A DNA stretch of 64,000 bases, taken from assembly GCF_001904725.1 (NCBI RefSeq), contig NZ_MRCE01000013.1, positions 1-64,000 on the forward strand. Reading direction: 5' to 3'. The DNA is from Phormidium ambiguum IAM M-71 (GTDB taxonomy: Bacteria; Cyanobacteriota; Cyanobacteriia; Cyanobacteriales; Aerosakkonemataceae). The notes under the pieces were generated by a model. That model was given only the letters and a program-made list of their open reading frames with translations, had not been told where the DNA came from and did not search any database. Within the stretch, counting starts at the first letter, position 1; each line of letters begins with the position of its first letter. Positions 20,531 through 23,611 of the stretch are shown here, one piece after another. A program made the position numbers and the translations under genes.

Positions 20531-21184
20531 TTAATTTGTCTCCCCTGCCCCCCTGCCCCCCTGCTTCCCTGCTTCCCTGCTTCCCTGCCAACGCTCCAAA
20601 GGTACACAATCAACATCTAACTGATCTAAAGCACGGGCTACTACAAAATCTACCAAATCTTCAATAGTTTGAGGATTGTGATACCAGGCGGGAATAGCGG
20701 GAACAATTCTGGCTCCTGCTTCCGCTAAACTGGTTAGGTTTCGCAGGTGAATTAAGCTAAAAGGAGTTTCACGAGGTACTAATACTAGTTTACGACCTTC
20801 TTTGAGTTGGACATCGGCTGCGCGTTCCAAAAGGTCGGAACTTAAACCTGCGGCTAACTTTGCTACTGTACTCATGCTACAGGGCATGACGACCATTCCT
20901 AGAGTGCGGTAGGAACCGCTGGCGATATTTGCGCCGACATCACCCCAAGGGTGACAACGCAGTTTTCCTTGAGTTAGTACTCCTGCTTGTTCGCGCCAAA
21001 ATTGTTCTTGCTGGGTTGGTTCGCCAGGTAATCGGATATTTTGCTCTGCTTGCCAAACCATGTAAGTAGATTTGGAAGCTACTAGCTCGATCGCATAATC
21101 AGCTTCTAGCAAAAATTTTAAAGCCCGAACTGCGTAAATTAAACCTGATGCTCCAGAAATTCCCAAAATTAAAGGTTTTGTCAT
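20531..21184 (-). CDS. ubiX: flavin prenyltransferase UbiX
   Basis: A 217-residue enzyme that makes prenylated FMN for UbiD decarboxylases. ILGISGASGLIYAVRAL binds FMN, and VMPCSMSTVAKLAAGLSSDLL and LVPRETPFSLIHLRNL are family motifs. The final ~16 residues (GSREAGKQGGRGAGE) are encoded by a CCCTGCC/TTCCCTGC tandem repeat at 20541-20589, so the natural C-terminus has probably been extended by repeat DNA. It lies 84 bp downstream of the RNB gene. Confidence 0.93.
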   Translation of the reverse strand: MTKPLILGISGASGLIYAVRALKFLLEADYAIELVASKSTYMVWQAEQNIRLPGEPTQQEQFWREQAGVLTQGKLRCHPWGDVGANIASGSYRTLGMVVMPCSMSTVAKLAAGLSSDLLERAADVQLKEGRKLVLVPRETPFSLIHLRNLTSLAEAGARIVPAIPAWYHNPQTIEDLVDFVVARALDQLDVDCVPLERWQGSREAGKQGGRGAGETN

Positions 21185-21268: not shown

Positions 21269-23611
21269 TTATTCATCATCAAAATTGGGAAATGGATAAT
21301 CATCACGTTCATCATCGTCGATCGCAATTTCACTGCCAACAGTTACTAAGTCTATTTGTTGACGATAATAATCTACACTTTTTACTTGTACTTCTACGCG
21401 ATCGCCTAACCGATATTGTTTACGATTTTTGCGTCCGACAAGTGCTTCTTGGCGAGAACGATACTCATACCAGTCATCTTTTAGGGATGATACATGAACT
21501 AAACCTTCAGGATAAAAAGGCGTACCATTAGCCACTGCAACTTCCATTTCCACGAAGAAACCGTAAGATTGGACACCAGTAATTACGCCTTGGAAAATTT
21601 CTCCCGTCCGTTCCTTCATCAATTCAGCTTTTTTCAATCCAGCCAAATCTGTTTCAGCTTCTTGTACCTCTTTTTCGCGTTCATTTAATGGCACAATTAA
21701 TGCTGTTAATCGTTCTTCTAATTCTTCTTGAACATTAGGTGGTAAAACGTTCCAATTGATTTCTCCGTGACAGGAACTATGATGTAGATTCACTTTTTCT
21801 TTGACTCTGGTACTGCGGCGATCGCGTCCTTCCTCAAAGACTAACATGAGTATTCTTTGCACTGTTAAATCTACATAACGTCTAGCTGGAGAAACAAAAT
21901 GTGTATAACCACCGGACAAAGCCAAACTGAAATGGGAACCAGAATTAGTGCTGTAAACAGAAGGTCTTAAAGTTGACTGTAACAACGAGTTTAAAACCTT
22001 TTCCGCTCTAGATTGAGAAAAATCTTCAATGTATTTTTGAAAATCAAAAGGTGTGACAGCATCTTCATTTTCCAATTGCAAATCTATTTCTAAATTGCTA
22101 GCTAATTTATGCAATTCAACTGCATCATCTGGATCGGGTGCTGCTTGAATGCGGTAAATACTTGGCACTCCTAAAGCTACTAAATGACTACCGACAATTT
22201 GATTTACTAAAATCATTAATTCCCGAACCATTGACTGAGCGGGGTGATTAGGCAGAGCGATCGCTGAATCAGCAATTCCTTCATCACTAAATTGGCTTTC
22301 AACTAAGGGAAGATTTAATTCAAAACTTCCCCGTTCTAAGCGATTTTCTCTAATCGTTTGGCTCAAAACAAACAGTTGATCGAGAGTGGCAAATACCGGA
22401 GATAATTCTTCTAAGTTCTCTTCGGTTAAATCCAAATTTGTATGGTGACGTAAAAGAATTGCTTGCGCCTGAGATTCCGTTAATTGAAAATCTACTTGAA
22501 TCACACTCTTTTGAATTTCAAATTCTACTACTTCACCATCATTAGATAAAGAAAGTAGTACAGAAACAGCTAGATGATTTTGTCCAGGTAATAAAGAACA
22601 ATGAGCTAGCAAAGGTTCAGGCAACATTGGCAAGATTGTGTCACCTAAATGTGTCGATCTACCGCGTCTTTGCGCTTCCCGATCGACAGGAGAATCTATT
22701 GGTACGTGATGGGCTATATCAGTAATGTGAATCCCGATTCGCCACAAATCTCCCTCAATTTTTTCCAAGGTAAAAGCTTGTTCTACCAGTAAAGTTTTTG
22801 CGTCAATATAAGCACCAGCTACAGGGGTAACGGTTAAAGTAATTAAATGACGTAAATCGAGACGATTTTTTAATTCTGTTTTGCTAATTTTGCTAGAAAA
22901 TTTTTCCAAAGATGAGAGTACGTTGGGAGAAAATTTTCTAGGTAAGTCATGTTTACAGCAAACAATATCAATATCCGCAGCTGCTTCTGCATCGCTACCA
23001 AGGATTTGGGCGACTCTACCCATTGGCGGATAAGACGCTAATGGATAGCGAACAATTTCTGCGTGTACTAAATGATCGATCGCTTCGTTTAAATTTTCGC
23101 CATTGGGAACTAAATCAAGTTCAAACAATAAGCGATCGTCTAAAGGAACCGCTTTGTAAATTACTTTTCCTGTAGAATCCATGCTTTGTTTTACCCTAGC
23201 TAAAACACTAGGATTGGCACGTTCTAAAATTAATTTAACTTCCCCTTCAGGGCTGCGCCTGCGGTTGCCTTCCTTGGTAATTTTTACCAAAACGCGATCG
23301 CCATTCCAAGCCGTACTTAAATGACTTTCCCGCACATAAATATCCGCTGCCCCTTCCACATTTTGAATCGCAAAACAAAAGCCCTTGCTGGAACACCGAA
23401 GTTTTGCTTCTACTATTCCCGGTTCAAAAACCCGTCGATATTTGCCTCTTTCCTTGACTAAAACGCCAACTTTTTCTAAGGCATCCAAGACAATTTGTAA
23501 TTTACGTAAACTAGGTTCATCAGTACAACCCAGTTTTTTCTCCAACACTTTGGCAGCTACCAATTTTTCATCGGGAAAATTAGAAAGTAATGTAGCGATT
23601 GAAAATTCCAT
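21269..23611 (-). CDS. RNB-domain protein of the RNase R/Zam type, catalytic aspartates missing
   Basis: A 780-residue protein: N-terminal winged helix (1-65), cold-shock-like domains (70-240), RNB domain (about 250-590) and a C-terminal S1 domain (about 660-755). RNA-path motifs remain (SPARRYVDLTVQR, TILPMLPEPL). The active-site D-x-D-D of RNase II/R reads L-V-E-Q at residues 275-278, aligned through the conserved downstream E-K and G-x-x-W-R. Length matches Synechocystis Zam better than the shorter second RNB protein. It is therefore probably an RNA-binding protein without, or with altered, exonuclease activity. That is an inference. Confidence 0.8.
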   Translation of the reverse strand: MEFSIATLLSNFPDEKLVAAKVLEKKLGCTDEPSLRKLQIVLDALEKVGVLVKERGKYRRVFEPGIVEAKLRCSSKGFCFAIQNVEGAADIYVRESHLSTAWNGDRVLVKITKEGNRRRSPEGEVKLILERANPSVLARVKQSMDSTGKVIYKAVPLDDRLLFELDLVPNGENLNEAIDHLVHAEIVRYPLASYPPMGRVAQILGSDAEAAADIDIVCCKHDLPRKFSPNVLSSLEKFSSKISKTELKNRLDLRHLITLTVTPVAGAYIDAKTLLVEQAFTLEKIEGDLWRIGIHITDIAHHVPIDSPVDREAQRRGRSTHLGDTILPMLPEPLLAHCSLLPGQNHLAVSVLLSLSNDGEVVEFEIQKSVIQVDFQLTESQAQAILLRHHTNLDLTEENLEELSPVFATLDQLFVLSQTIRENRLERGSFELNLPLVESQFSDEGIADSAIALPNHPAQSMVRELMILVNQIVGSHLVALGVPSIYRIQAAPDPDDAVELHKLASNLEIDLQLENEDAVTPFDFQKYIEDFSQSRAEKVLNSLLQSTLRPSVYSTNSGSHFSLALSGGYTHFVSPARRYVDLTVQRILMLVFEEGRDRRSTRVKEKVNLHHSSCHGEINWNVLPPNVQEELEERLTALIVPLNEREKEVQEAETDLAGLKKAELMKERTGEIFQGVITGVQSYGFFVEMEVAVANGTPFYPEGLVHVSSLKDDWYEYRSRQEALVGRKNRKQYRLGDRVEVQVKSVDYYRQQIDLVTVGSEIAIDDDERDDYPFPNFDDE

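What the first reader, a model, noticed from the sequence alone, without database searches (positions are those of the whole stretch)
22712..22864. RNase R-like protein has lost its catalytic aspartates (D-x-D-D replaced by L-V-E-Q)
RNB exonucleases need a cluster of aspartates just before the conserved A-x-x-x-E-K...G-x-x-W-R segment. Here residues 275-278 are L-V-E-Q, and the preceding TIDG-type motif is also lost, yet the RNA-path arginines (SPARRYVDL), S1 and winged-helix domains remain. This looks like a pseudo-exoribonuclease kept as an RNA-binding or regulatory protein, possibly shared by the Zam group.
Basis: partly seen in the sequence, partly recalled or inferred. Interest (0 to 1): 0.6.

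Follow-up and report, generated by a model that had tools for sequence, protein, structure and literature searches.

The report
Zam, a cyanobacterial RNase R pseudoenzyme
This cyanobacterial gene makes Zam, a protein with the overall shape of an RNA-shredding enzyme but without the acidic residues that do the cutting; that is already published, but the loss proves uneven, because a related group of cyanobacteria still carries most of the cutting site.

Summary
The gene at 21269-23611 (-) encodes Zam, a 780-residue RNase R-fold protein (model pLDDT 92; best folds RNase R). The four catalytic aspartates of RNase II/R are T262, L275, E277 and Q278. The own genome also holds an intact RNB enzyme (TIDDESTKEIDD).

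What my survey adds: among 222 Zam proteins none has all four acidic residues, but the loss is not uniform. 68 keep Asp209-Asp210, 35 of these also Asp201, and all 68 keep catalytic Arg500 and Tyr313. The position almost always non-acidic is Asp207. 25 (Gloeobacter, picocyanobacteria and others) keep none. The window lies in a clade with Glu at 209. The picture resembles repeated nuclease loss in fungal Ssd1/Dis3L2.

By gene order Zam is Anabaena Alr1240, which another group reports as an active RNase II that binds and stimulates RNase E. That conflict is directly testable.

Best explanation: a catalytically dead RNB scaffold acting through its OB domains, probably as a redox-tuned RNase E or RNA partner.

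The parts
21269..23611 (-). zam CDS, 780 aa, RNase R-like (HTH, CSD1, CSD2, RNB, S1)
   Evidence: PF08206, PF17876, PF00773, PF00575; RNase R equivalog model TIGR02063 hit at 453 bits, below its 598 cut-off; model pLDDT 92.3, pTM 0.91
22778..22789 (-). LVEQ, residues 275-278, at the place of D207-x-D209-D210 of RNase II (D278-x-D280-D281 of RNase R)
22823..22840 (-). TLTVTP, residues 258-263; T262 stands at the place of D201 (the TIDG motif)
22793..22822 (-). low-confidence loop, about residues 264-273, longer than in RNase R, just before LVEQ
   Evidence: pLDDT 67 for residues 261-270; insertion seen
21866..21892 (-). SPARRYVDL, residues 574-582; R577 stands at the place of catalytic R500 of RNase II
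   Evidence: kept in 138 of 222 Zam
23372..23398 (-). RCSSKGFCF, residues 72-80: CSD1 L12 loop with the cysteine pair C73/C79
   Evidence: C73 in 220 of 222 and C79 in 218 of 222 Zam, absent from the RNase II/R compared; redox-active and essential in PCC 7002
21341..21610 (-). S1 domain, residues 668-757
   Evidence: about 0.79 mean conservation across 222 Zam; dN 0.05-0.07 against 0.33-0.35 for the RNB domain
20531..21184 (-). ubiX-like flavin prenyltransferase gene directly downstream, probably co-transcribed
   Evidence: adjacent on the same strand in 103 of 138 Zam loci with room; alr1240-alr1241-alr1242 are one transcription unit in Nostoc PCC 7120

Best explanation
The gene encodes Zam, an RNB-family protein that descends from an RNase R-type exoribonuclease and has lost the two-metal catalytic centre. 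SHOWN by sequence and model: three of the four metal ligands are non-acidic and the fourth is E; two of the tyrosines that hold RNA in the active site are gone; the RNase R fold is kept; CSD1 and S1 are under strong constraint while the RNB domain has drifted; and an intact RNB enzyme remains elsewhere in the genome. SHOWN by others in other strains: the CSD1 cysteine pair is redox-active and needed for function, and deleting zam changes phycobilisome synthesis and photosystem balance. INFERRED: in this organism Zam does not hydrolyse RNA; it works through its OB domains as a redox-tuned partner of RNA and/or RNase E that raises or targets RNase E cleavage. RNase E binding and stimulation are reported for Anabaena Alr1240, which gene order identifies as Zam.
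For: Active-site state T262/L275/E277/Q278 with H321 and E379. Intact paralogue TIDDESTKEIDD in the same genome. RNase R fold (VIA-align Z 42.7, rmsd 7.2, to 8cdu_C over 636 residues; Foldseek E 1.3e-55). Constraint: mean conservation of CSD1 0.86 and S1 0.79 against 0.50 at motif I; dN of CSD1 0.01-0.07 and S1 0.05-0.07 against RNB 0.33-0.35 between near relatives. C73/C79 kept in 98-99% of 222 Zam. Literature: PCC 7002 Zam had no detectable nuclease, cysteine mutants phenocopy deletion; Alr1240 binds RNase E and boosts its cleavage; 'RNase II' co-precipitates with RNase E in a later study. Alr1240 = Zam: alr1238 is ClpP subunit 1, alr1240-alr1241-alr1242 are one unit, and an Anabaena relative has clpP, a 276-aa reverse gene, zam, ubiX and a 221-aa gene in that order, whereas the Nostocaceae Rnb loci read have other neighbours.
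Against: A review states that Alr1240 degrades unstructured RNA like RNase II; if that activity is its own, the pseudo-nuclease reading fails for a relative whose site is VEN-type. Thomas et al. found no RNA binding by purified Zam either, with an aggregation caveat, which weakens an RNA-binding role. RNase E binding and redox control were not tested in this organism. Alr1240 = Zam rests on gene order and the statement of Thomas et al., not on the PCC 7120 sequence, which I could not read. R577 is kept in the window, so not all catalytic residues are gone.
Confidence: 0.6

Rival explanations
1. Zam is still a weak exoribonuclease. E277 replaces D209 as metal ligand, R577 supports catalysis, and other side chains complete the site, as the reported activity of Alr1240 would imply.
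For: Review of Zhou et al. 2020: Alr1240 degrades unstructured RNA. E or D at the D209 position in 188 of 222 Zam. R500 kept in 138 of 222.
Against: D209 is the most critical residue of RNase II, D209N abolishes activity. D201, D207 and D210 are all non-acidic in the window. R500 is Q in the three nearest relatives. Purified PCC 7002 Zam showed no activity. Enzyme preparations from E. coli can carry RNase II, RNase R or PNPase (general knowledge).
Confidence: 0.13
2. The degenerate RNB pocket has been put to another use (a ligand- or metabolite-binding pocket, or another chemistry), and the fold is kept for that.
For: The RNB domain is retained in all lineages sampled; Microcoleus-type Zam carry a 25-40 residue acidic insertion in the motif I loop.
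Against: The pocket region is the least conserved part across Zam (0.50 at motif I), with no clade-wide replacement residues, unlike a pocket under selection.
Confidence: 0.1
3. The gene is a decaying pseudogene.
For: The RNB domain evolves fast.
Against: Intact 780-aa frame; near-invariant CSD1 and S1; Zam in 217 of 217 Nostocaceae genomes and 375 of 388 genomes of the class.
Confidence: 0.02

Closest known systems
Zam of Synechococcus PCC 7002 and Synechocystis Sll1910 (Thomas et al. 2022, PMC9145284)
   Same: Same domain order, degenerate RNB active site, CSD1 cysteine pair at residues 73/79, a second intact RNB paralogue in the genome.
   Different: No material difference for the window protein. 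The paper says the canonical site is absent from every Zam; my larger sample agrees that none has all four acidic residues but shows a sub-clade that keeps D209-D210 and partly D201, and two Zam of family f20 without the cysteine pair.
RNase R (E. coli, B. subtilis, M. genitalium)
   Same: Fold and domain order; R500 equivalent.
   Different: Lacks D272, D278, D280 and D281 equivalents, Y324 and the second tyrosine; below the RNase R equivalog cut-off.
Yeast Ssd1 (Dis3L2-derived pseudonuclease)
   Same: RNB fold without the catalytic set; cold-shock domains conserved more than the RNB domain; nuclease loss repeated in several lineages.
   Different: Different RNB branch; Ssd1 has CSD1 and S1 insertions that block the channel, and no redox cysteine pair is described in what I read.
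Cyanobacterial Rnb (Sll1290 type)
   Same: RNB family; present in the same genome (L001).
   Different: Intact TIDDxSTxEIDDGL motif; RNB domain is its most conserved part; essential active enzyme in Synechocystis.

Membership tests
Zam clade | High overall identity and one clade apart from Rnb | tested here: met
   P0001 is placed in a supported 41-row group inside 124 representative Zam; 47-72% identical to most Zam of the alignment
Zam clade | CSD1 cysteine pair C73/C79 in RCSSKGFCF | tested here: met
Zam clade | Degenerate RNB active site | tested here: met
   T262/L275/E277/Q278
RNase R (active exoribonuclease) | Four conserved aspartates of motif I | tested here: not met
RNase R (active exoribonuclease) | RNase R fold and domain order | tested here: met
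RNase R (active exoribonuclease) | Curated equivalog score | tested here: not met
   453 bits against a cut-off of 598
RNase R (active exoribonuclease) | 3'-5' exonuclease activity | not testable with these tools
   needs a purified protein
RNB pseudonuclease (Ssd1-like mode of action) | Conserved OB domains with a drifting RNB domain | tested here: met
RNase E partner (Alr1240 type) | Binds and stimulates RNase E | not testable with these tools
   reported for Alr1240; identity of Alr1240 with Zam by gene order only

The most novel reading that the evidence does not exclude
Zam is not a uniformly dead family. A sub-clade (families coded f15, f16, f19, f33, f42, f49 and others here; named members Oculatella, Elainella, Leptolyngbyaceae, Phormidesmis) keeps D209-D210, Arg500 and Tyr313, and partly D201, lacking only Asp207 in the best cases. 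It may still cut RNA, or bind metal and RNA in the old channel, and nuclease activity was lost repeatedly in other Zam lineages, the window's included, after a non-catalytic role had been taken up.
Probability: 0.3. Interest if true: 0.55.

Novelty: already known. Interest (0 to 1): 0.35.

Why it matters
The pseudo-exonuclease itself is published. The graded loss found here gives natural intermediates between an active RNase R-type enzyme and a dead scaffold, and it makes the conflict between two published claims (Zam inactive; Alr1240 active) testable with three proteins: a TIDG+DD Zam, the window type, and a Gloeobacter-type Zam with nothing left. Zam also couples RNA turnover to photosynthetic redox state according to others, so knowing whether it cuts RNA decides how that coupling can work.

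Tried and rejected
Aspartates elsewhere in the fold: D270 in YIDAK was considered as a shifted ligand and rejected, because it is not conserved in L033/L034. Sequencing error or pseudogene: rejected (open frame, same LVEQ in relatives). Canonical RNase R in the own genome: the only other RNB protein is Rnb-type. Test of co-loss of R500 with DD by independent pairs: only 3 pairs available, cannot reach significance, so the 68/68 figure is partly shared ancestry. Rooting of the Zam tree: unstable. With RNase R as outgroup the root falls among the DD carriers (support 11, long branch), giving 3 losses of DD; rooted on a Gloeobacter-type row the loss-only count is 11-12, an overcount because those rows were not recovered as one clade by that script. 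Regain of DD is not formally excluded. Some D201/D207 assignments inside the variable-length loop depend on the alignment (8 rows with an acidic letter at 207; only L254, LDIDD, looks real). Zhou et al. 2020 is not held; its claims are taken from a review. A second structure job (a TIDG+DD Zam, L235) did not finish in time. No Rfam RNA near zam.

Full report
What is there. The finding lies in a 780-residue frame on the minus strand, 21269-23611, with the domains OB_RNB/CSD1, CSD2, RNB and S1 and an N-terminal helix-turn-helix-like region. The finding's coordinates are residues 250-300, and LVEQ is residues 275-278 exactly as stated. Two independent alignments, phmmer to PDB chains and MAFFT with E. 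coli RNase II and R from K-12, put D201/D207/D209/D210 of RNase II on T262/L275/E277/Q278. The same columns fall on D272/D278/D280/D281 of E. coli RNase R. Y253 and Y313 have become H321 and E379; R500 is R577. The AlphaFold model is confident (pLDDT 92.3, pTM 0.91) and its best matches are RNase R structures; the loop before LVEQ is the least certain part of the body.

What it is. It is Zam. It has the CSD1 cysteine pair C73/C79, which is kept in 220 and 218 of 222 Zam and is absent at those positions from the RNase II/R proteins compared. The same genome has one other RNB protein, an Rnb with the intact motif TIDDESTKEIDD. Thomas et al. 2022 (PMC9145284) already reported that Zam proteins form their own RNB clade, have degenerate active sites, lack nuclease activity in one purified example, and depend on the redox-active cysteine pair; deletion lowers phycocyanin synthesis and alters the PSI:PSII ratio. 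The core of the finding is therefore already known.

Is the loss uniform? None has all four acidic residues. The position of D207 is V, P, A, S, L, I and others, acidic in 8 rows of which one (L254) looks real; the position of D209 is E in 105 and D in 83; D210 is N in 72 and D in 69; D201 is D in 40. 68 proteins keep D209-D210, 35 of them D201 too, 11 of these with canonical spacing. All 68 keep R500, R501, Y502 and Y313, and 61 keep Y253, against 70/154 for R500 and 58/154 for Y313 in the others. In the DD group the RNB domain is also more conserved (mean identity 0.60 against 0.46 in the E209 group, with CSD1 0.87 and 0.83). Zam of DD-type genomes score 291-336 bits against the RNB family model, above the Rnb of the same genomes (up to 265), while the window's Zam scores 248. 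25 Zam have no acidic residue at any of the four places, including most of the Gloeobacter-type proteins, picocyanobacteria and Thermostichus-type genomes.

History. In the FastTree tree the DD carriers group together next to the window's own order, whose members nearly all have E (rarely D or N) at 209 and N, Q, H, R or T at 210. The most economical reading is that Zam came from an RNase R-like enzyme, that Asp207 was lost early, and that the rest of the site decayed in parallel in several lineages while the DD group kept it. The root is not resolved and regain cannot be excluded by the tree alone; the joint retention of R500 and Y313 argues against regain but is partly shared ancestry. This would parallel the fungal Ssd1/Dis3L2 case, where nuclease loss is repeated and the cold-shock domains are the conserved part.

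Selection. Between the window and its nearest relatives dN is 0.01-0.07 in CSD1 and 0.05-0.07 in S1 but 0.33-0.35 in the RNB domain; dS is saturated in most parts, so ratios are only indicative. R577, kept in the window, is Q in the three nearest relatives.

Conflict in the literature. [quoted passage not shown] the original paper is not held. Thomas et al. identify that protein as Zam. I tested this by gene order: alr1238 is ClpP subunit 1, alr1240-alr1241-alr1242 is one transcription unit, and in Anabaena subtropica the order is clpP, a reverse 276-aa gene, zam, ubiX, and a 221-aa gene on the strand of zam, as in the window for clpP, the 274-aa gene, zam and ubiX. The two Nostocaceae Rnb loci I read in detail lack such an arrangement. 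So Alr1240 is very probably Zam. Nostocaceae Zam are VEN-type (E at 209, N at 210). Either this degenerate site is active, or the preparation carried a host nuclease. The window belongs to the same order, so the answer bears on it.

Mechanism. Most likely Zam is a non-catalytic RNB scaffold whose CSD1 (with its redox cysteine pair) and S1 act on RNA and/or RNase E. Steps shown here: residue loss, fold, constraint pattern. Steps shown by others elsewhere: redox activity and necessity of the cysteines, RNase E binding and stimulation, phenotype. Inferred: that these hold in this organism and that no RNA is hydrolysed.

Distribution. Zam was found in 375 of 388 genomes of the class at E 1e-30 and 217 of 217 Nostocaceae. 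Two genomes of family f52 (one with the size I recall for Anthocerotibacter) hold a single RNB protein, Rnb-type, and no Zam. The members of the phylum outside the class that I searched gave no Zam-level match.

Noticed in passing
window 20531-21184 (-) and Zam loci: A ubiX-like flavin prenyltransferase gene follows zam on the same strand in 103 of 138 loci with room, and clpP plus a 274-276 aa gene of unknown function lie upstream in 54 of 69; a conserved neighbourhood that links zam to prenyl-FMN chemistry without an obvious reason.
   Followed up: partly
L049, L055, L066, L108, L118, L119: Microcoleus-type Zam carry an acidic insertion of about 25-40 residues exactly in the former catalytic loop.
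   Followed up: no
L113, L159: Zam of two genomes of family f20 (Thermostichus-like in size) lack the C73/C79 pair that is described as invariant and essential.
   Followed up: partly
L131, L132, L145, L146: Some cyanobacteria have a third RNB protein with an intact-looking motif (TIDDxTTVDRDD or TIDGxTSxDLDD), distinct from both Rnb and Zam.
   Followed up: no
L114, L115: In two picocyanobacterial genomes the Rnb-type frame is only about 400-430 residues and lies about 15 kb from zam.
   Followed up: no
G395 (L168), G404 (L169): Two genomes of an apparently early-branching family (f52) have one RNB protein of Rnb type and no Zam.
   Followed up: partly
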